DNA from: Drechmeria coniospora
Lineage: Eukaryota; Ascomycota; Sordariomycetes; Hypocreales; Ophiocordycipitaceae
Length of the DNA: 64,000 nt
Direction of reading: 5' to 3'
Assembly: GCF_001625195.1 (NCBI RefSeq)
Contig: NC_054390.1
Span: 2,132,027-2,196,026 of the forward strand
Shown here: positions 1,060 to 47,744 of the stretch, piece after piece
Position numbering within the stretch: position 1 is the first letter of the stretch
Layout of the letters: each line of letters starts with the position of its first letter
Program-made: the position numbers and the translations under genes
Notes under the pieces: model-generated
What the model saw: the letters and a program-made list of their open reading frames with translations, nothing else
Database searches by the model: none
What the model was told of the DNA's origin: nothing

Positions 1060-2190
1060 CTTATTACTAACTATTTATATTAGTTAATTACTTACTTTCT
1101 TATTATTATACTATTATATCTATTACTACTAATACTCCTCCTCCCCCTTTTAATAATAATAATAGCCTTAGTTATAGCTATACCTTAGATAAGTTATTGG
1201 CCGTTTAGTTAATAGGTAGCTTTACTATTTAGGGAAACTCCTTAGATAAGGAGTATAACGTTCCTATTGTTAAGGCTTAAATATACTTACCTTATATTAA
1301 ACGTTTAGTCCGTATTGGTACTGCCTACTGTAAATATAGTAGCGGTAATAGCTATACTACTTATACCTTAGCCTAATATAGGTATAAATAAATTCTATAC
1401 CTACTAATACTATATTTATACCTTTACTATATTGTTTATAAGCTTATTCTTACTACTACTAAAGGTAGCTATATTATTTCAGCTGCTTATACTAAGACGG
1501 CTAAATTACCTAGCTATTATATTTACCTTTCCGCCCTATTTTACTAGCTTAGGAATACTTAGTATAAGCTCTATAATACTACTAGAATAACTCCTATTAA
1601 TATTGTTCCTATTACTCCCCTTACCCCTACCGGTAGTACTACCTATAGTACTACTGCTATAGCGTTACCCTTAACTTCCGGTAACCCTATAGGTACCCTA
1701 GTACTGGCCTTACAGGCCCTAATACTATTATATAGTAGTAGTATATAGTATTAGTAGCTATAGATACTAGTATATAGTTTTACTAATACTATATAAGGCC
1801 TGCGTAACTATTAGGGCGCATAGGACGCTTGGTTTAATAGCTTTAAGCTAGTATAATAATAGTAGTTAGGCCTTATAGCTACAATCTATAAGGAGCTAGT
1901 TACTGCTTATTATATCTATAAGGTAAGTATACTTTATTTACCTTACTCCCCTCGTTAGGAACTATAGTCCCCCTCCTCCCCCTATTGTCCTATTATTAAT
2001 TACTTTAGTCTGTATTACCTTACTACTACCTTACCTTTTACTACCCTTAGTAGAAGTTATATTTATTGCATTTTATTTATAAATAGCCTCCTAGTATTAG
2101 TTTAGCCCCTTTACTTTTTGTCCTTAGTTAAGGATAACTTAAGTAAGCTATTACTTCCCCCTAGCTATTAAGGGCCTAATACTTATATGC
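1060..2190 (+). pseudogene. RIPed copy of the chromovirus antisense accessory ORF
   Basis: Plus-strand sequence here aligns base for base with the antisense ORF of family A at 33301-34395. Examples are the AATAATAATAGCC run near 1155, the GATAAGGAGTATAACGTTCC stretch near 1245, and the TACTGTAAATATAGTAGCGG stretch near 1325, which corresponds to the cysteine cluster. CpG in the GC-rich copy is almost always TpA here. It is destroyed by stops and is not expressible. It matters because it shows the ORF belongs to the element and is not a private insertion in one copy. Confidence 0.7.
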
Positions 2191-21919: not shown

Positions 21920-23558
21920 TATTATAGAGTTACTAAGTAACTACTTTGGGGCTTTTAATAATATTTATTAAAAGACTTAAAGAAAGAAAAACTACTTAGT
22001 AACTAGGGGTTTTAGTTATATATATTCTTTTTAGTAAGTCCCTTAGTTTTCTTTATTCTCCTATATTAAGCTAAGCCTAATACTATAATATACTATCTTA
22101 CTTTACCTATTTAAAGTAAAATCTATTTATAGCTATAGCTAAACTACCCTTCCTTAAGTTAGCCTTCCCTATATTATAGCTTTTAATTTTTAATTGTTTT
22201 ATTTAGATTTTTTAGGTATTTATTAAGCGCTTAATATATATAGTTATCTTTTTACTTTATTCTTTTCTTAAGAATTTACTAATTACCTAAGGTAATTAGC
22301 TTTACTTTACTTTAGCCCCTCCTTAGGTATTTACTAAATACTTAAAGTAACTAACTCTACCTTACTTTATTCCCTCCTTAAGTATTTACTAAGTACCTAA
22401 AGTATTTAGTCTTACTTTACTTTTTCCTTTTATTATTCTTTTTATATTAATCTTTTTATTTCCTTTTTATTATACTTTATTATTTCTTTTTCCTTTAATT
22501 ATTATACCTATTTATCTTTTAGTTCCTTACTATATAATTTTTATTATTAACTTTTTATTACTTCCTATTATACTTATTTTATTATTATTATTATTCCTTT
22601 CCTATAAAGTAAGTTATTCCTTTTTTATTAGGGTTATTTTATATATTCTTTAGGCTATTAGCTAATAGATTAATATTAATAAGAATTATTAATTTCCCTT
22701 TTATTATTATTATTCCTTTCTTATAGAATAAGTTATTATTTCTTACTGTATGTATTATATCCTATATAAAAAGTATTATTAATATTTTTAGCTTTCTTAT
22801 TAGGAATTTATTTACCTTTTTTACTATTACTATTATTATATTTACTACTATAAGTACTACCCCCTCCCCCCTTTAGATATAGTTCGGGCCTTTATTATAA
22901 GTATTATACTAATAAGTTAAACTATTATTATACTTTAAGTAAAATTTTAGTAAAAAGTAATTCCTTTAATAAAAAGTTTACTTTTTTAAAAAAGAATATA
23001 AGAAATATACCTTCCTTATATTAATTACCTTATTATTAATAGCTATAATAACTATATATTAGGCTATAGTACTAATTACTGTATATATATATACTAAATA
23101 TATTTAGGTACTATATTTATTTATTATATACCTTTAGCTATATTATACTTTATATAACCTTTATATTTATACTTAATATAATATTTATATTTTAGTTAAG
23201 AACTACCTTAAGGTTAGATTTATACTAAATACTTATATTATTTTTTGCCTTAAATTTCTAGCCTTAAGCTAAGTTTAAGCTTATACTTTAATTTTAATTA
23301 AAATAAAGCTTACTTTTATATATTTTACTTATACCTTTACCTTTATACTAAGTATTATTTCCTTTCTTACTACTTTTAATAATAATAATAACTTAAACTA
23401 TACCCTTATCCTTACTATTAATACTTTAACTTTATTTTAGGCTAATAGCTATTTTAATACTATACTAAGTATATAGCTTAATATATTTACTTAAGGTATA
23501 GTCTAAGCTCTAATAAGTATTTAAAGTAATATATATAGCCTTACTTAGTATTAATAAG
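21920..23558 (-). mobile_element. Truncated, RIPed chromovirus B fragment
   Basis: Positions 21920-22090 are a 171-bp family-B LTR (starts TATTATAGAG, ends CTATAATA) aligning with 40323-40493. The rest aligns with the adjacent internal sequence of element B (40494 to about 41850), including the antisense ORF region near 22840-23550. Only the 3' end of the element (minus orientation) is present. It stops abruptly at 23558, where another LTR-like sequence begins. Mutation is extreme: CpG and CpA are nearly all TpA. Confidence 0.85.
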
Positions 23559-32600: not shown

Positions 32601-32646
32601 TGTTAAGGAGTCACTAGGTAATTGCTCTAGGGCTCTCAATGATGTT

Positions 32647-32847
32647 TGTTATGGAGTCACTAGTACTACCAGTATCTAGTGGTCGGAAATAGTTATTAAG
32701 AAACCTACGGAACACTAACTTAAGGTACGAGGCATTGGAGTACTTATACTCCAATGCCTGCTTAGTCATAGGATACGAGTTACGTACGGTAGCGCGTAGC
32801 TCTATCCTAGGATATAGCTCTATTAGGCAAAGCCTAATATCATAACA
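32647..32847 (-). repeat. 3' LTR of chromovirus A copy 2
   Basis: 201 bp, reading TGTTATGGAGTCAC to CCTAATATCATAACA on the plus strand. Termini are inverted TGTTAT/ATAACA. The few differences from the right LTR are transitions. Confidence 0.95.
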
Positions 32848-32876
32848 TATCCCCCTCCTTCCCTAATTCCTCCAGT
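32848..32876 (-). other. Polypurine tract of chromovirus A
   Basis: The plus strand reads TATCCCCCTCCTTCCCTAAT directly inside the left LTR. On the element's strand this is a purine-rich stretch, the expected plus-strand primer site. It independently supports the minus orientation. Confidence 0.75.
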
Positions 32877-32895
32877 AGTCCTCAATTAATCCAAT

Positions 32896-32898
<3 letters not shown>

Positions 32899-32928
<30 letters not shown>
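32899..32928. repeat. Poly-T tract (30 T)
   Basis: Thirty consecutive T between the polypurine tract and the tandem repeats of the element. It is a poly-A run on the element's strand. A similar but shorter T run lies near 40595 in element B. The length may be assembly-sensitive. Confidence 0.9.
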
Positions 32929-32930
<2 letters not shown>

Positions 32931-33128
32931 CTCTGTCCTGTTCGCGGGTGGTTGCCGGGCGCGTGTATTGATGCTTCTGTAGCTAAGGTTCCGTTGCGGC
33001 CCCGTTGCGCTGCCCCTTTGTCCTGTTCGCGGGTGGTTGCCTCTGTCCTGTTCGCGGGTAGTTGCCGGGCGCATATATTAATACTTCTGTAGCTAAGGTT
33101 CCGTTGCGGCCCTGTCGCGCTGCCCCTC
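32929..33128. repeat. 110-bp tandem duplication in the chromovirus A 3' region
   Basis: GCCTCTGTCCTGTTCGCGGG starts both units, at 32929 and 33039. The units share GTTGCCGGGCGC, CTTCTGTAGCTAAGG and CGCTGCCCC. Unit 2 shows several transitions (GCATATATTAATACTTC against GCGTGTATTGATGCTTC). An extra copy of the GTCCTGTTCGCGGGTGGTTG sub-motif ends unit 1. Confidence 0.85.
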
Positions 33129-33300
33129 CGTATTTCTTATGTGTTCGTTGCGGGTAAGTTGCGTGTTTCCTCTTTCCTCCTTTGTAATTGCCGCTTCCTT
33201 TAACGCTGCCGTTACAATTTCTTGCTTCCTCCCGCTCTCCCGCCTTCCTTACGGTACGTACCGTACCGGGGTTCTTGCTGCCGCTTGTCGCTAACTGCTT

Positions 33301-34395
33301 GTGTTAGTCGATTACTTACTTTCCCGTCGCCGTACCGCTATATCTGCCGCCGCCGATACTCCTCCTCCTCCTCCCAACAATAATAATAGCCCTATTCGTA
33401 GCTACACCTCGGACAAGGCATCGGCCGTTCGGTCGATAGGCGGCTTTACCGTCCAGGGAGACTCCTCGGACGAGGAGTATAACGTCCCCGCCGCCGAGGC
33501 TTAGATATGTTTGCCCTGCATCGAACGTCTAGTCCGCACCGGCGCCGCCTACTGCGAACGTAGTGGCGGCAATGGCTGTACCACTTGCGCCTCGGCTCGG
33601 CGTAGGTGCGAATAGATTCCGCACCTGCTAACGCCGTATCCGCGCCTCCGCCGCATCGTTTGCGAGCTCGTTCTTGCTGCCGCCGAAGGCGACTATATTG
33701 TTTCGGCTGCCCGTACCAAGACGGCTGAATTGCCCGGCCGCCGCGTTCGCCTCTCCGCCCCGTTTCGCTAGCTTGGCGATACCTGGCGTAAGCTCTATAA
33801 TACCGCCAGGACGACTCCCGCCGACGTTATCCCCGCCACTCCCCTTACCCCCGCCGGCGGTACTGCCCGTAGTACCGCCGCTGCGGCGCTGCCCTCGACT
33901 CCCGGCGACCCTATAGGTGCCCTGGTGCTGGCCTCGCAGGCCCTAACGCCGTCGCACAGCAGTAGTGTGCAGTAGCAGCAGCTGCAGATGCTAGTGCGCG
34001 GTTTTGCTGGCGCCATGCAAGGCCTGCGCGACCATCAGGGCGCGCAGGACGCCCAGCTCAACAGCTTTAAGCTAGTGCAATAGCAGCAGTCGGGCCTTAT
34101 GGCCGCGATCCACGAGGAGCTAGTTGCTGCCCGCCGTACCCGCAAGGCGGGTACGCCTTGTTCGCCCCGCCCCCCCCGTTGGGGACTACGGTCCCCCTCC
34201 TCCCCCCGTCGCGCTACCGCCGACCGCTCCGGCCCGTCTCGTCTTGCCGCCGCCTCGCCCTCTACCGCCCCCGGTAGAAGTTGCGCCCGCTGCGTCCTGT
34301 TTGCGGACGGCCTCCTAGCGCCGGCCCCGCCCCTTTACCTTTCGTCCTTAGTCGAGGATAACTCGAGCGAGTTACCGCCTCCCCCCGGCCGTTAA
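33301..34395 (+). pseudogene. Antisense accessory ORF of chromovirus A, six-cysteine protein
   Basis: A single plus-strand frame of 365 codons, opposite to gag-pol and outside pol. It is interrupted by five stops, all TAG (33502, 33613, 33769, 33973, 34081), two of them flanked by Gln codons, so CAG-to-TAG mutation explains them. The frame ends at TAA 34393. Order of parts: a Pro/Asn-rich leader (PPPPPNNNNSPI); an acidic motif VQGDSSDEEYNVP; a cysteine cluster at 33508-33609 with spacing CX2CX11CX7CX2CX6C, similar to a fungal Zn2Cys6 domain, including the basic CASARRRC; a middle region; a Gln-rich, probably helical C-terminal region (LVRGFAGAMQGLRDHQGAQD); and a Pro/Arg-rich tail. No ATG is visible at the start. 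The homologous ORF in element B shares frame, order and cysteine spacing. Function unknown. Confidence 0.6.
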
Positions 34396-34599
34396 GGGCC
34401 TAACGTTTGTGCGCTACGGCGCTGAGACTTCGTCTTGCTTGTAGCGCCCCGATTGGGGCTGGGAATTCTTCGGGGCCGACCTGGGTCCTTCGTTTTGAGA
34501 CGTTCCGGTTTGGGACGGAGGAGTTATTTGCGCCCCTTTCGGGCTGGTTGAATGCAAGCCGCGCCGACGCTATTGTTGCAAGGAGACTAGTCCGTCGTA

Positions 34600-36110
34600 A
34601 GTAAGTACGCTACCCCATTTTTGCTCGTAGTCTGCTAGTGCTTTGGTCTCCTGTAGATTTTCCAGCGGTTCCTACGTAGGTTGGTTATGCCCGGCCTATT
34701 TGACTAGGATATTGTAGCGCTTACCTTACCCTCTTGCGTTCTTTGCGGCTAAGATTTCCTCTACAATATACTCTTCCTGCGGTATGCCGTCCTCGTCCTC
34801 TACCAAGAGCGGCCCTAGCTCTGTATTCGTTAAGGCTTGACTAGGTAGCGGATCCGTTGCGGCCCGCTCTACTAGGTCTACGTAAAAGGTAGGGTGCGTG
34901 CCTCGGGGGACATCTAGCGTAACAGTTAGGGGGGTCGGTACGGCTACGACCGTATACTTAGCTGTTACCTAGTCTAGCTTCTTGGATAGGCGTAGAGACT
35001 TTATATAGCATAGACTTAGCTATACCTTATCCCCTACCTGGAAACGCTCCGCTGGGCGCCGGTGGGAGTTTGATTCTTCCTCTAAGCGTTGCTATGCAAA
35101 TATAATTGCCGCCTGGGCCAGCTCGGTGCCTTCGCGCAGGCACTGTGCGAACGCTACTGCTTGCCCTTTACCCGTAGTTGCGCTTAGGGTGGGAGCTTCC
35201 ACCCGTTGTACTGCATTAACTTCGTATCCTAATAGGAGACTGTTCGGGCTTATGCCGGTAACGGAAGAGTCCCTACCATTTAGCGCTAGCTAGCATACCG
35301 CTAGATAGTCCGGCCAGTTAAATTGGTCGAACGCTATAAAGGTGCGTAGGATTGCTTGAACTTCTTGGTTCGCTCGTTCCGTGCCTCCGTCTGACTGCGG
35401 GTGATATGCTGTAGACAGCCGCTGTTCGATCCCGACAATACGGTATAACGTTGCCCAGAACTGGCCGACCCAGTCTGATCCTCGGTCGGATATAATGTAT
35501 TCCGGGAACCTACGGAAACGCTACTAGTACTCCTTGAACCGTTCGGCATACGCTTCTGCCGTTATAGACGTTATAGCTTCCAGCTGTACGTACTTGGACA
35601 GCCTGTCTGTAAGTACCATTATGTACTGTAGCGCTTGTTCGTCTTGTGCGGGTAGCTCCGTTATAAAGTCTACGGAGATCTGTTTCCAATATCTATCCGG
35701 CGGCTTAATTTGCCGCAGTAGGCCCTGGCGGTGCTGCCTACTCTTGTAGCTGCGGTAGCAGTAGTAGTTCCGTATAAATCGCCCTACCGCTGCCGATATG
35801 TAATCCCAGTAGTAATTCCTCTTTAGCGCTGCGAATGTAGTATTTCGTCCTGGGTGCCCCGAGATAGGGGAGTTATGGACTTGGTAGATAACGCGTGTAG
35901 TTAGCGGTTCCTACGATAGTAGCCACAGGCGCCCTCGGAACTATAGCGCACCGTGCGCGTTAATAGTGCAGTCGGCTACCTGTTCCCGCGTATCTGCTTC
36001 GTCCGGGAACTTGCGGTCTCCGCAACGTATAGTATCTAGGCGTACTGTATACGTCTAGTCCTTAATGACTGCCTGGTCCTATAGCTCCTGCAAGCTAGTA
36101 TCGTGGAATA
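34600..36110 (-). pseudogene. Integrase with C-terminal chromodomain (chromovirus A)
   Basis: The minus strand reads an integrase zinc-binding region (about 35690-35900, with ISGHPGRNTTFAALK), the catalytic core (KQISVDFITELP near 35670; AYHPQSDGGTERANQE near 35400) and a C-terminal domain. The end is a chromodomain at 34624-34790: EYIVEEILAAKNARG, then a KYxVKWxGY-like strand read here as RYNILVK, then NQPTWEPLENLQ (some Trp/Gln codons now stops). Chromodomains of this type bind modified histone H3 and steer insertion to heterochromatin (established for MAGGY and other chromoviruses). Several TAG/TGA codons interrupt the frame. Confidence 0.88.
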
Positions 36111-36199
36111 GCCGTAATCCTAGTAGTAGGTTGCTAGGCGGTTGCTCTACGGGCGCGCTGCGGGTGCTCGGCGAACTTCCGAAATTGCTGATTGATACA

Positions 36200-37660
36200 G
36201 GTTGTAATACTTATATAGTTCGGGGTTAGTGCTCTACGTCCTGCTGCCTGCGTAATAGTGCATCTGGCCGTTGCGCTTGAGATCCCGGCCTGTACTGTAA
36301 ATAAAAGTTAAACTGCAAGAGCTTCTCAGCCTACCGTACCTAGCGCTCCGAGATTTCCCGCGGTCGGGTAAAGTATTTTAGGTTCTTGTAGTCGGTTAGA
36401 ACCGTAAACGGTGCGGATACCCCTTGCAGGTCTGCCTGCTATGCCTTAAGGCAGCGCACTACTGCCAAGAGCTCCTTATTGTGGATTGTATAATTGCGCT
36501 CTACGGCCGTTAATTTTGCCGAATAGTATGCGACCGGGCGCAGGATGCCTTTCTCGTCTACCTATAATAGGTATCCTCCTAAAGCCGTACCGGAACAATC
36601 TGCCTCTACAAACGTTGGTCTCTCTGCATCCTATTGTGCCAGGATCGGGTGCGATATAAATAGTCGCTTTAGTTCTTCGAACGCATTATCCTCGTCGGTA
36701 GTCCAGCGGAACGGCTACCCCTTGCAAGTAAGCTGGGATAGGGGCGCTATTAATTCCGCGAACTAGGGGATAAATTCCCGGTAGAAGTTAGTAAACCCCA
36801 AGAAACTATATACCCCTCGGATAGTCCTTAGTGCCTCCCAGTTGCGGATAGCGGCTATCTTTGCCGGGTCGGTCCGGATTTCTACTCCTGCCTGAATAAT
36901 ATAGCCCAGGTACTTAACTTCCTTAACTGCAAAGGCGCACTTATCTAGGTCCAAGTATAGACCTGCTTTACGTAGGCGTTAAAGTACCCCTTTTACCTTC
37001 CGAATATAGTCCGCCTTGGAGCCGCTTGTGTACACTAAGATATCGTCCAGAAAGGCCGTTACGAAGTTACTTAAATTAGTTCCGAGTACCCCGTTGATAT
37101 AACGCTAGAATGTTGCGGGAGCGCCTGTAAGTCCGAACGGGCAGACCAGCTATTCAAATAAGCCGAAGCGGGTGCGGAATACCGTAAGGTGCTCGCTACC
37201 GGGCGCAATACGGATCTTATGGAAGGCCGCCCGTATATTGAGTTTCGTAAACCAGCGGGATCCTGATAGGGAGCGCAACGTTTCCTTTATTAGCGGTAGG
37301 GGATACCTATCCTGTATTGTAATCTTATTTAGTGCGCGGTAATTTACGCAAAGGCGCTAACCCCCCCCCGGTTTCTTGGTTAGGAGGATCGGTACCGCTA
37401 CCGCTAAGGAGCTAGTACGTATCTACCCTTTGTCCAACAATTCGGTAATCTGCTGTCGTACCTCTAACAACTGGTCCTGTAGTATATTGTACAATAGTCC
37501 CTACGGCAGCTCTGGGGGTTCCCCGTTGGGCCCGGTTCGCAGCTTAATGTGGTGGTCCCTTAGTCCCCGGTGTGGAGGAAGGCCGGAGGCCTACGCCTTA
37601 TCGAATAAGTCGGCAAACTCCTTTAGGTAGGCGGGCAGGTGTCCCTCCGTCCCGCTGGGC
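36200..37660 (-). pseudogene. Reverse transcriptase / RNase H (chromovirus A)
   Basis: The catalytic LDDILVYT is encoded at 37027-37050 on the minus strand, followed by the connection stretch DLDKCAFAVKEVKYLGYI and FLGFTNFYREFIP (36954-36763 is fully open). RNase H-like sequence follows to about 36.2 kb. The frame is in phase with the upstream protease (38208 and 36954 differ by 418 codons). Stops are mainly TAG. The catalytic Asp pair is intact. Confidence 0.9.
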
Positions 37661-37677
37661 TTGGGGCTCGGTACTAC

Positions 37678-38208
37678 TTAGCGGAGTGCTGCCGAGATCT
37701 CTATTAAGTTGGTAACTACCGCTTGGCTCTTCGGTTCGGCCATAACAGACGAAACAGTTGCAATCTCGAGGTTGTAGCTGCCGCGCTGCGGCCGCGCATC
37801 TGCTGCTTGTACCACCTGGCCCCCTGCCGCTCTAATTGTAAGGCGGCGTTCGGCTGCGTGCAGGTCGATACCGCGGTGTTCCATCCACAGTAGGCCCAGT
37901 ATTGCATCTCGGCTAAGGCCTGGCACTACGTATAGTACCGCTGGAGACTCCCAGCCGTCTATATCGAGCGCAACTCGTACTATATGCGAGATATATAGAT
38001 GTACCTCCGTTGGGCCGCCCCGGCGGCGTATTACTGCTACGGCTGTCTTTAACCGGCGCCGTACCGGTAGTGGAATAAGCTTAAGGCGCAGACTTTGGGC
38101 CGTACGTTCGCTGATTGCGCTATAACAATCGCAACCGCAATCGATTTGAACGTCTAAGAAACGGGTAGAATTTACAAGCGTTGGGATAAGGAATGGCGGC
38201 CTGTCCAA
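37678..38208 (-). pseudogene. Retroviral-type aspartic protease domain (chromovirus A)
   Basis: Open frame of 176 codons with the active-site loop VQIDCGCDCYSAIS (Asp-Cys-Gly in place of Asp-Ser/Thr-Gly) and a second conserved segment VPGLSRDAILGLLWMEHRGI. It lies between gag and reverse transcriptase, as in Ty3/gypsy elements. The frame differs from gag, so a ribosomal frameshift was probably used to make Gag-Pol. It is part of the interrupted pol, so marked as pseudogene although this domain is itself unbroken. Confidence 0.85.
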
Positions 38209-38289
38209 TTGCGCCTCGATATCCTAAAATTGCTTCCTCTAACGCTTAGTCCTCCCGCTTTGGTCCTTGTCTATACTGTCTTACCCCTG

Positions 38290-39422
38290 CGCGAGACTTA
38301 GCTCGGGGGCGCTTCGTTTTCCGAGAACTGGTCTAAGGATTCCTCCTGTACGTTCTCCCTCTCTGTATTTACCCGATAAATAGATAGATTTTGTACCGGT
38401 CGCGCCGCGGGCCGCATTTTGCAGTCTTTAATAAAGTGCTGCTTGGATCCGCAGCGTAAATAAGCGCCCTCCTCCTTACGCGCATCAATTGTACTGCGGG
38501 GGACCTAAGTTGCACGCTAGCTTAACGACTGCCCTAGGCTGGTCCTTGTTCCTTGGGTTACTGGGCGACGGCGCCCTACAGTTGCTGCGTTAATGCCCGT
38601 TATCCGTACGTTACCGTCCTCGTCCGTTATGGGTTTTGTCGGGGCTATTGCGCGGCCGTAGCGGTTCCGGTATTTCTCCTCCAAGCGGTACGATTCAATG
38701 TCTACCGCAATGCTACGGTAAATATTAACGGCCGCCTTGTAACTATCTCGTGGGATATTGCGCCCAATACTGCTATCCCGTATGGTCTTATTGAGCGCGC
38801 GACGCAGCTTAACGAGTTTAATTTCGTCGGGCCAATTTATTCCCCCAGCTAATGCTAGCTTTTGTTCGAAGCGTACGTAGAATGAGGTAAATGCCTTATT
38901 GCTTGCTTGCTCTAGTTGTTCGAGCTCGGTCTGCGCTATCTCTATCCGATGAGGGTTGGCGAAAACGGATTCGAGGTAAGCCAAGAATTGTAACGGGTTG
39001 TACTGGTACGACGGCCCTGCTTCGAAGAAGGCTGTAACGCGGGACTGAATCTTAGGCGCTAAGCACTGCCAGACGAACATCCACTGGTCCTTGTCGGTAC
39101 CGATAAACTTACGGTCGGTAACTAGCTTGTGGGCCATAAGTATCTTCCAGGCTGTAAACGTAGTCTTATCTCCATCGTATGGTGCCCCTGTTGGTATTGG
39201 TTTACGTCGGACTTAGGGAAGTATTGCTGGGCCATTAACAGTTAAGGGGGTCCGTACCGATCCCGACGTAGTACCGGGCTGCGCCTCCCGGGACGCTTGG
39301 TGCTGCATTACCGTAGCGATTTGCTGGCGTAACTGCTGGATTTCTGTAAACCAGTCGGGTGGTAGTTGGCTAGCGGTAGCATTTTGTTCGCTAGGTAGTG
39401 CGTTGTTGTCCTGTTGATCCAT
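38290..39422 (-). pseudogene. gag (chromovirus A)
   Basis: Starts at ATG 39422 (MDQQDNNALPSEQN), passes a coiled-coil-like segment (IQQLRQQIATVMQHQ), one in-frame TAA at 39213-39215 (former CAA), then a capsid-like region open to 38517 (KLVTDRKFIGTDKDQWMFVW onwards). After a TAG at 38517 the same frame continues into a zinc knuckle read YLRCGSKQHFIKDC near 38440-38465. The first Cys of a CCHC knuckle appears replaced by Tyr, a TGT-to-TAT transition. Confidence 0.85.
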
Positions 39423-39475
39423 TGTTCAATAGTCTGCGGCCTACTGCTTGCCGTAACGAAGGGAGGTTTCTTAAA

Positions 39476-39676
39476 TGTTATGGAGTTACTAGTACTACCA
39501 GTATCTAGTGGTCGGAAATAGTTGTTAAGAAACCTACGGAACACTAACTTAAGGTACGAGGCATTGGAGTACTTATACTCCAATGCCTGCTTAGTTATAG
39601 GATACAAGTTACGTGCGGTAGCGCGTGGCTCTATCCTAGGACATAGCTCTATTAGGCAAAGCCTAATATTATAACA
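39476..39676 (-). repeat. 5' LTR of chromovirus A copy 2
   Basis: 201 bp, TGTTATGGAGTTAC to CCTAATATTATAACA on the plus strand. It is the element's 5' LTR because gag begins 54 bp inside it on the minus strand. Confidence 0.95.
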
Positions 39677-39806
39677 ATGTTTATTAAAAGACTTGAAGGA
39701 GGGAAAACTACTTAATAACTAGGGCTTCTAGTTGTGTGCGTTCCTCCTAGTGGGTCCCTTAGTTCTCTCCGTTCTCCTATATTGGGCTAAGCCCGATACT
39801 ATAACA

Positions 39807-40322: not shown

Positions 40323-40493
40323 TGTTACGGAGTCGCTAGGCAACTGCTCTAGGACTCTTAATGATATTTATTAAAAGACTTAAAGGAGGGAAAACTACCT
40401 AACAACTAGGGCTTTTAGTTATATACGTTCCTCTTAGTGGGTCCCTTAGTTCCCTTTGTTCTCCTATATTGGGCTAAGCCCAATACTATAATA
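40323..40493 (-). repeat. 3' LTR of chromovirus B
   Basis: 171 bp from TGTTACGGAGTCGC to CAATACTATAATA; the terminal CA has become TA. It aligns with the right LTR with transition differences. Confidence 0.92.
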
Positions 40494-41049: not shown

Positions 41050-42063
41050 TTGCTACTGTTGCTCCTCCCTTATAGAGGACTTATTTACCTTTTTGTTACT
41101 GCTGCTGCTGCTATTATATCTACTGCTATAGGTACTCCTCCCCCCCCTCCCGGATGCGGTTCGGGCCCTTATTATAGCTACTATACCGATAAGTCGGACT
41201 ACCGTTACGCCCTAGGCAAATACCTAGTAGAGGGTAACTCCTCCGATAAGGAGTTCGTACCTCTAGAGGAGGTATATAGAATGTACCTCCCTTGCGTTAA
41301 TTGCCTTATTACTAGCGGCCGTAACAACTACGTACCGGGCCGTAGTACTAGCTACCGTATATACGTATACGCGTATGCTAAATGCGTTTAGGTACTGTAT
41401 TTGTTTACCGCGCGCCCTTAACTGTATTGCGCCCTGCGCGACCTTTGTGCTTGCGCTTAGCGTAACGTTTATATCCTGGTCGAGGCCCGCCCTAAGGTCG
41501 GGGCCGTACCGGGCGCTTGCGCCGTCCTATCGCTTGAGTTTCTGGCCCTAGGCCGGGTTTAGGCTTGCACCCTAGCTCTGGCCGAGATAGAGCCTGCTCC
41601 CGTACGCCCCGCCTATACCCTTGCCCCCGTACCGGGTATTATCTCTCCCCCCGCCGCCGCTAATAACAATAACGACCCGAACCGTACCCTTATCCTTACC
41701 GCTAATGCCTTAACCCCAACTCAAGCGGGTAGCCGTTCTAGCGCTATACTAAGTATATAGCTTAGCGTATTTGCCTAGGGTATAGCTTGGGCCCTAACGG
41801 GCATCTAGAGTAACGTACGCGGCCTTACCCGCTGTTAGTAGGCGCAGGAGGGCGTTAGTACTAAGTTAGTAGCTACTTTGGCCGAGATGCGCTGTAATAT
41901 TTGTAAGTTGCGTAAGTCTTGCGCTAGTAGTTCCCCCTTAGTGCGTTATTCTGCCCCCTCTACTCCCTGCGTTACCTATAATTGCAGTAGGTTGCGCTTA
42001 TCCCGCATAGCCGACGCAACTCTATTATACCGCCCTATTGCCTCCGCCCCTTATATCGCCTAA
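41050..42063 (+). pseudogene. Antisense accessory ORF of chromovirus B
   Basis: One plus-strand frame (338 codons) with all interruptions TAG or TAA, open for 113 codons at the start and 61 at the end. It is homologous in order to 33301-34395 of family A: a hydrophobic/Ala leader, a Pro run (PPPPPGCGSG), YYTDKSDYRYALGKYLVEGN leading to SSDKEFVP, then a cysteine cluster at 41293-41385. Spacing there is CX2CX8(C)X7(C)X2(C)X6C if three Tyr codons (TAC) are read as mutated TGC, the same lattice as family A. A helical C-terminal region (STKLVATLAEMRCNICKLRK) follows. The function is not recognised. Confidence 0.55.
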
Positions 42064-42349
42064 GTCGCCTAGCGCCTTTGTTTTATACCCCTGCCCCCGC
42101 CCCCCTTAGTTACGTCCTACCCCCGCCTAAGTACTACAATAGATAGTTTCGAGACCCTCCCTAAGGAGGATACCAAGGAGGATAAGAGTAAGGAGGATAC
42201 AGAGACTAATAAGTCTAAGTAGTACGGCTAGCGTATATCCGTAGTAGTAGTATTAGGTCGGGCCCTTATTGGGGGCGCTCTAGGGCCGATTTTTTCCTTC
42301 GGTATAGTTAAAATTTTATATTTCGTTTTGCGGCTTACCCGCGCTCCGC

Positions 42350-47573: not shown

Positions 47574-47744
47574 TATTACGGAGTCGCTAGGCGACTGCTC
47601 TAGGACTCTCAATAATATTTATTAAAAGACTTAAAGGAGGGAAAACTACCTAACAACTAGGGCTTCTAGTTGTATGCGTTCCTCCTAGTGGGTCCCTTGG
47701 TTCCCTTTGTTCTCCTATATCGGGCTAAGCCCAATACCATAACA
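47574..47744 (-). repeat. 5' LTR of chromovirus B
   Basis: 171 bp from TATTACGGAGTCGC (TG mutated to TA) to CCCAATACCATAACA. Confidence 0.92.

What the first reader, a model, noticed from the sequence alone, without database searches (positions are those of the whole stretch)
33301..34395. Accessory antisense ORF with a six-cysteine cluster in chromovirus A
Downstream of the chromodomain, on the strand opposite gag-pol, one frame runs 365 codons interrupted only by five TAG codons. Because pol ends before it, it is not a shadow of pol. It has an acidic SSDEEY motif and a CX2CX11CX7CX2CX6C cluster with a basic end, resembling a fungal Zn2Cys6 DNA-binding domain, then a Gln-rich helical tail. 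An antisense-encoded regulator at the 3' end of an LTR element would parallel the antisense proteins of some retroviruses (HBZ of HTLV-1 is the known case). In a fungal chromovirus I am not aware of a described counterpart. It is the best candidate here for an undescribed system, for example control of the element's own transcription or targeting.
Basis: partly seen in the sequence, partly recalled or inferred. Interest (0 to 1): 0.85.

Follow-up and report, generated by a model that had tools for sequence, protein, structure and literature searches.

The report
Antisense gene in fungal LTR retrotransposon
A jumping element in a nematode-killing fungus carries an extra gene written backwards next to its end, conserved between related elements and holding a puzzling fixed stop signal in its middle; similar backward genes are already known from other fungal and plant elements.

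Summary
The frame is real: +33301-34395, five TAG and a final TAA. The host is Drechmeria coniospora. The frame lies tail-to-tail with gag-pol in a 7.0-kb chromodomain Ty3 element with a 5-bp target duplication, between pol and the 3' LTR. It is conserved as protein between two element families whose aligned DNA is 51% identical (10 SD above permuted substitutions in this frame), with the same six-cysteine spacing; in the more diverged pairs, transversions are depleted of amino-acid changes. So it is most likely a protein-coding antisense accessory gene.

Two corrections. The kind is known: Boty of Botrytis (gag-pol with CHROMO domain) carries antisense brtn, and plant Grande, RIRE2 and Retand carry comparable genes; the cluster is not Zn2Cys6 by spacing or profile. 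And four of the five TAGs are CAG in other copies (RIP damage), but the TAG just after the sixth cysteine is not: it is a stop in 42 of 42 aligned copies with letters there (45 aligned) and in 89 of 90 genome-wide pattern matches, while conserved protein continues in frame behind it. I read this as a ~91-aa cysteine-cluster protein plus, probably by UAG readthrough, a longer form; expression, readthrough and regulatory function are inferred.

The parts
32642..32646 (.). target-site duplication ATGTT, left copy (right copy 39677-39681)
   Evidence: sequence printed
32647..32847 (-). 3' LTR of element A (TGTTA...TAACA), 201 bp, 96% identical to the other LTR
32848..32863 (-). polypurine tract candidate on the sense strand (pyrimidine-rich on +)
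   Evidence: sequence; function inferred
32899..32928 (+). T30 tract between 3' LTR and antisense gene; T runs of 12 or more upstream in 11 of 14 family A loci checked (of 21 aligned) and 21 of 24 family B loci; possible promoter element
   Evidence: role inferred
32927..33127 (+). two copies (32927-33017, 33037-33127; 92%) of a 91-bp repeat upstream of the antisense gene
33301..34395 (+). antisense frame: five TAG, closing TAA; start codon position 33340-33342 (ATG in lightly mutated copies, ATA here)
33508..33609 (+). six-cysteine cluster CX2CX11CX7CX2CX6C, same spacing in family B
33613..33615 (+). fixed TAG (codon 105), a stop in every aligned copy of both families that has letters there
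33616..34392 (+). conserved downstream frame, in phase with the cluster; helical, Gln-rich
   Evidence: helices only at low confidence
34618..34770 (-). chromodomain at end of pol
   Evidence: PF00385, E 0.032, full profile, below cut-off
35398..35679 (-). integrase core of element A
   Evidence: PF00665, E 8.8e-06, below curated cut-off
36895..37377 (-). reverse transcriptase of element A
   Evidence: PF00078, E 7.6e-30
38790..38975 (-). gag of element A, in another frame than pol
   Evidence: PF03732, E 0.00096, below curated cut-off
39464..39474 (-). 11-nt primer-site candidate beside the 5' LTR, complementary to a stretch inside the LTR (39525-39535): Tf1-like self-priming candidate
   Evidence: mechanism recalled, inferred
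39476..39676 (-). 5' LTR of element A
41113..42219 (+). homologous antisense frame in the second element (LTRs 40325-40491 and 47576-47742), fixed TAG at 41389-41391

Best explanation
The frame is an antisense accessory gene (aORF between pol and 3' LTR) of a Ty3-type chromodomain LTR retrotransposon of Drechmeria coniospora. Shown: protein-level conservation across diverged families, conserved cysteine spacing, the same start region, CAG in other copies at four of the five stops (RIP), and a fixed UAG in the middle. Inferred: it is transcribed against gag-pol from a promoter between the 3' LTR and the gene (T tract, repeats, CT-rich stretch). Its main product is a ~91-aa acidic, cysteine-cluster protein ending at the fixed UAG; a minority of ribosomes read through UAG and add a ~260-residue helical, Gln-rich tail. 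The protein binds metal and nucleic acid or chromatin and tunes the element's own expression or integration.
For: Frame conserved between families A and B, z=10.4 over permuted substitutions; N-part, cluster, and both parts after the stop each z 4.7-5.8. Cluster identical in spacing. Transversions, L058 vs L080: 9 synonymous/8 nonsynonymous before the stop (P 0.005), 21/30 after it (P 0.004), about 77% nonsynonymous expected; L058 vs L082 17/22 (P 0.004); L002 vs L015, after-stop part only, 5/2 (P 0.014). Codons 68, 157, 225, 261 are CAG in some copies; codon 105/120 never: stop in 18 of 18 A and 24 of 24 B loci with letters there (21 and 24 aligned), and in 72 of 72 B plus 17 of 18 A pattern matches, which overlap those loci. 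Located in an element with LTRs, target duplication, gag, RT, IN and chromodomain.
Against: No transcript or protein data. Families A and B are near saturation (pS ~0.6); raw pN/pS is only 0.74-0.75, and 0.88-0.89 in codons 106-185, where the complementary frame scores almost as well (z 4.3 against 4.7). Closer pairs L058/L059 and L058/L063 show no significant depletion (P 0.27-0.57, few events), and L002/L018 has 13 nonsynonymous of 14 transversions. The P values are for chosen pairs, not corrected for number. L080 and L082 also have frameshifting indels. No unusual RNA structure follows the UAG (z 0.3, 0.8, -0.75, -1.2), and its context is not a readthrough motif that I recall. Structure models are of low confidence (mean pLDDT 63 and 46). 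Homologues found only in D. coniospora.
Confidence: 0.6

Rival explanations
1. Spliced gene: an intron ends at the fixed TAG, so the stop is a 3' splice site; retention would give the short cysteine protein and splicing a longer protein without the cluster.
For: By my reading of the protein letters, public gene models P0001, P0003 and P0005 place an intron end exactly at this TAG; family B has a fair donor (GTGCGC in 3, GTACGC in 1 of 4 copies shown) 117 nt upstream. TAG fits a fungal acceptor (recalled).
Against: No CTRAY branch site in the 160 nt before TAG in 9 of 9 copies shown (10 given, L064 was not matched by my script), and that donor is not shared by family A, where GTATGA at -136 is in 3 of 5 copies. 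Gene models place donors differently, and P0006, P0007, P0008, P0009, P0010 and P0012 end the intron elsewhere. The supposed intron is protein-conserved (cluster z=5.0, pN/pS 0.48-0.59).
Confidence: 0.17
2. Two separate products: the 91-aa protein ends at TAG and the downstream frame is translated from its own start or own transcript.
For: TAG behaves like the terminal stop codons; downstream part conserved.
Against: Conservation resumes at the first codons after TAG (I/V-P/L-H-L) and in the same phase, with no ATG near it shared by both families.
Confidence: 0.15
3. Regulatory antisense RNA: antisense transcription feeds dsRNA silencing or interference, and the protein is incidental.
For: Discussed for plant elements in PMC7264820 (passages).
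Against: Does not explain amino-acid conservation and cysteine spacing.
Confidence: 0.08
4. Chance or shadow open frame.
For: GC-rich DNA lowers stop density; the complementary frame also scores z=7.5; in L002 another plus frame has as few stops (4 and 4).
Against: It lies beyond the chromodomain of pol. The wobble-sharing minus frame carries 7, 9, 12 and 10 stops in L005, L002, L058 and L060, against 2, 4, 3 and 3 in this frame, final stop included. Conservation is best in this frame.
Confidence: 0.04

Closest known systems
brtn of Boty-like elements (Botrytis cinerea, Sclerotinia sclerotiorum; Zhao et al. 2011 Virology 417:248; title and descriptions in other papers seen, the paper itself is not held)
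   Same: Fungal LTR element with CHROMO domain in gag-pol and an additional antisense gene between pol and 3' LTR
   Different: No sequence relation shown: no Botrytis or Sclerotinia protein among relatives, but the BRTN sequence was not held for direct comparison; a fixed UAG is not mentioned in what I saw
Plant aORF-3R elements: Grande gene23, RIRE2, Retand ORF4/TRP28 (PMC11963269 abstract, background and discussion; PMC7264820 section 5 and passages)
   Same: Antisense ORF between pol and 3' LTR, tandem repeats there, predicted nucleic-acid binding or nuclear protein, own promoter in Grande
   Different: Retand is non-chromovirus; no TRP28 match here; cysteine cluster and fixed UAG here
HBZ of HTLV-1
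   Same: Antisense-encoded protein of an LTR element
   Different: No sequence relation tested; HBZ is a bZIP protein (recalled)
Fungal Zn2Cys6 (GAL4-type) domain
   Same: Six cysteines with CX2C pairs and basic residues
   Different: Spacing X11 rather than X6 (recalled definition); no Pfam match

Membership tests
Antisense aORF between pol and 3' LTR (aORF-3R) | antisense to gag-pol, between pol end and 3' LTR | tested here: met
   (element A)
Antisense aORF between pol and 3' LTR (aORF-3R) | present and conserved in many copies of the family | tested here: met
   112 match places in the own genome with the family B query, fragments included; 33 DNA match places with family A; conservation. 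Presence in every pol-bearing copy was not counted
Antisense aORF between pol and 3' LTR (aORF-3R) | antisense transcript from own promoter | not testable with these tools
   no transcript data; T tract and repeats only
BRTN protein family | sequence homology to BRTN | tested here: inconclusive
   no Botrytis or Sclerotinia protein; BRTN sequence itself not available
Retand TRP28 (PF04195) | TRP28 domain match | tested here: not met
   Pfam scans at E<=1, 0.1 and 10
Zn2Cys6 (PF00172) | profile match | tested here: not met
   the cluster pieces match only PF17121 (RING type), partly, E 0.026 and 0.0005, below cut-off
Zn2Cys6 (PF00172) | CX2CX6CX5-12CX2CX6-8C spacing (recalled) | tested here: not met
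   CX2CX11CX7CX2CX6C in both families
Chromovirus | chromodomain at C-terminus of pol | tested here: met
   PF00385 full profile, E 0.032, below curated cut-off in a mutated copy; the family B pieces from the window gave no match

The most novel reading that the evidence does not exclude
An antisense accessory gene of a fungal retrotransposon is split by a programmed, evolutionarily fixed UAG that yields a short cysteine-cluster protein and, by readthrough, a long form with a helical tail: recoding used on the antisense strand of an LTR element.
Probability: 0.3. Interest if true: 0.7.

Novelty: new variant of a known kind. Interest (0 to 1): 0.5.

Why it matters
It adds a further fungal lineage (Ophiocordycipitaceae, per PMC4792172) to the known cases of LTR elements with an antisense gene, with a protein that matches neither the plant TRP28 domain nor any protein found outside this species. 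That fits the view that LTR elements gain antisense proteins more than once. The fixed UAG makes a concrete, testable case of recoding or alternative splicing in such a gene, and comparing many copies shows how to tell RIP stops from stops that belong to the element.

Tried and rejected
Zn2Cys6 membership: rejected. Host-gene capture: no relative above cut-off in Pfam, NCBIfam (a library for bacteria and archaea) or, for the 91-aa piece, PDB sequences; 12 proteins found in three searches, named D. coniospora in the listings. These searches need shared 5-letter words, and searches scored only 7995 candidates each, so distant relatives in other fungi can be missed. Intron ending at TAG: disfavoured. 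RNA structure after TAG: nothing unusual. Structure prediction: too weak to use, so no fold search was run. dN/dS inside one family: not usable, because differences are almost all transitions as from RIP; I used transversions instead. One search had minus-strand loci unturned; it was redone and is not used.

Literature: 8 searches in the held library; one search was a term error. None of the 11 titles and abstract starts listed describes this gene in D. coniospora; of those papers I saw only passages of PMC4792172. The recoding terms gave 4 papers, seen as a listing only.

Full report
Where it is. The window is G000:C2:2132027-2196026 of a 32.8-Mb genome. Its large contigs of 12.5, 10.2 and 9.75 Mb, and proteins named Drechmeria coniospora on contigs of 9,751,215 and 10,204,147 bases, match the three chromosomes and active RIP described for this fungus (PMC4792172, passages).

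The element. Element A spans 32647-39676, with 201-bp LTRs 96% alike, TGTTA...TAACA ends and the 5-bp duplication ATGTT on both sides. On the minus strand it has RT and RNase H above Pfam cut-offs, integrase core and gag below them, and a chromodomain at 34618-34770 (below cut-off, full profile). Its right flank resembles the LTR of the second family (39677-39804 against 40364-40491, 90%).

The frame. +33301-34395 has five TAG and a closing TAA; other frames have 10-15 stops. Of the 20 other family A loci aligned, 18 differ from the window copy by transitions and at most 8 transversions; L016 has 19, and L015 103, mostly from a badly aligned part (only 7 in 536 bases where it aligns with L002). 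This is what RIP predicts. Codons 68, 157, 225 and 261 are CAG in 3 of 18, 5 of 18, 6 of 21 and 8 of 21 loci with letters there, plus one CAA at 261. L005 has a single internal stop, codon 105, and ATG at codon 14.

A second family. A protein search of the genome found a diverged set at 27-39% identity; 24 of these loci were aligned. The homologous frame has the same start region, acidic motif and cysteine spacing. In the window it lies at 41113-42219 in the element bounded by LTRs at 40325-40491 and 47576-47742.

Is it coding? Between L005 and L058, aligned DNA is 51% identical, yet the amino-acid score in this frame is 10.4 SD above 300 permutations of the same substitutions; the alignment was made in this frame, which favours it somewhat. 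The complementary frame sharing wobble positions has 7.5, the other four -1.3 to 2.2; in codons 106-185 alone this frame (4.7) hardly exceeds the complementary one (4.3). Raw pN/pS is 0.74 overall, 0.48 in the cluster, 0.89 in codons 106-185 (L060 instead of L058: 0.75, 0.59, 0.88), with pS near saturation. Transversions, which RIP does not make, are depleted of nonsynonymous changes for L058/L080 (30 synonymous, 38 nonsynonymous, P 1e-4) and L058/L082 (17/22, P 0.004), and L002/L015 (5/2, P 0.014). L058/L059 and L058/L063 have too few events to tell. L002/L018 is 1/13, against my reading, though L018 is a heavily mutated copy and decay after insertion would give this. These are chosen pairs, uncorrected.

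The fixed stop. Every internal stop column but one has a sense codon in some copies. The exception, codon 105 in A and 120 in B, is a stop in 18 of 18 and 24 of 24 loci with letters there (21 and 24 aligned), as the terminal codons are (21 of 21, 23 of 24). With the codon left open, RIP-tolerant flanking patterns found 72 family B places, all TAR, and 18 family A places, 17 TAR and one TAT; copies whose flanks do not fit the pattern, L002 among them, are missed. L082, a further diverged copy, has TAG there too. Two of the 72 family B places carry C or G at every RIP-variable position of the pattern and still have TAG, so TAG does not look like RIP of single copies. Protein conservation continues from the next codons, and selection after the stop is seen in L058/L080, both of which have TAG. 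That TAG was already there in their ancestor is parsimony, not proof.

How it may work. A 91-92 aa cysteine-cluster protein ending at UAG is the simplest product. The downstream frame is conserved, so it is probably expressed somehow: readthrough fits best because phase and conservation are continuous; an intron lacks a branch site (9 of 9 copies shown) and a donor shared by both families, although public gene models use one. T runs of 12 or more stand upstream in 11 of 14 A and 21 of 24 B loci checked and could be promoter parts; this is inference.

Compared with the known. [quoted passage not shown] PMC7264820 section 5 and passages) and in fungal Boty, of which one element has a CHROMO domain in gag-pol (PMC4227169 passage). 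So the architecture is known; the protein family, the cysteine cluster and the fixed UAG are what is new here, as far as searches show; the primary brtn paper is not held, so an overlap with it in protein sequence is not excluded.

Noticed in passing
window 39464-39474 with 39525-39535: 11-nt stretch beside the 5' LTR is complementary to a stretch inside the LTR, as in Tf1-type self-priming (recalled); would place the sense start of R in the LTR.
   Followed up: partly
window 32927-33127: 91-bp repeat pair between 3' LTR and the antisense gene, like the repeats in plant Retand elements.
   Followed up: partly
L005-L009: Subfamily A lacks 156 nt (a multiple of three) near codons 277-328 of the antisense frame.
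   Followed up: partly
window 1389-1391 and about 23099-23132: Further heavily mutated copies of the antisense frame with a stop at the fixed position.
   Followed up: no
P0002 (RJ55_01257): Protein from another assembly of the species whose first residues look like an out-of-phase reading of the region around the fixed stop, followed by the antisense frame; its DNA was not seen.
   Followed up: no
window 32642 and 39677: Element A seems inserted in an LTR-like copy of the second family, which would order the two insertions.
   Followed up: partly
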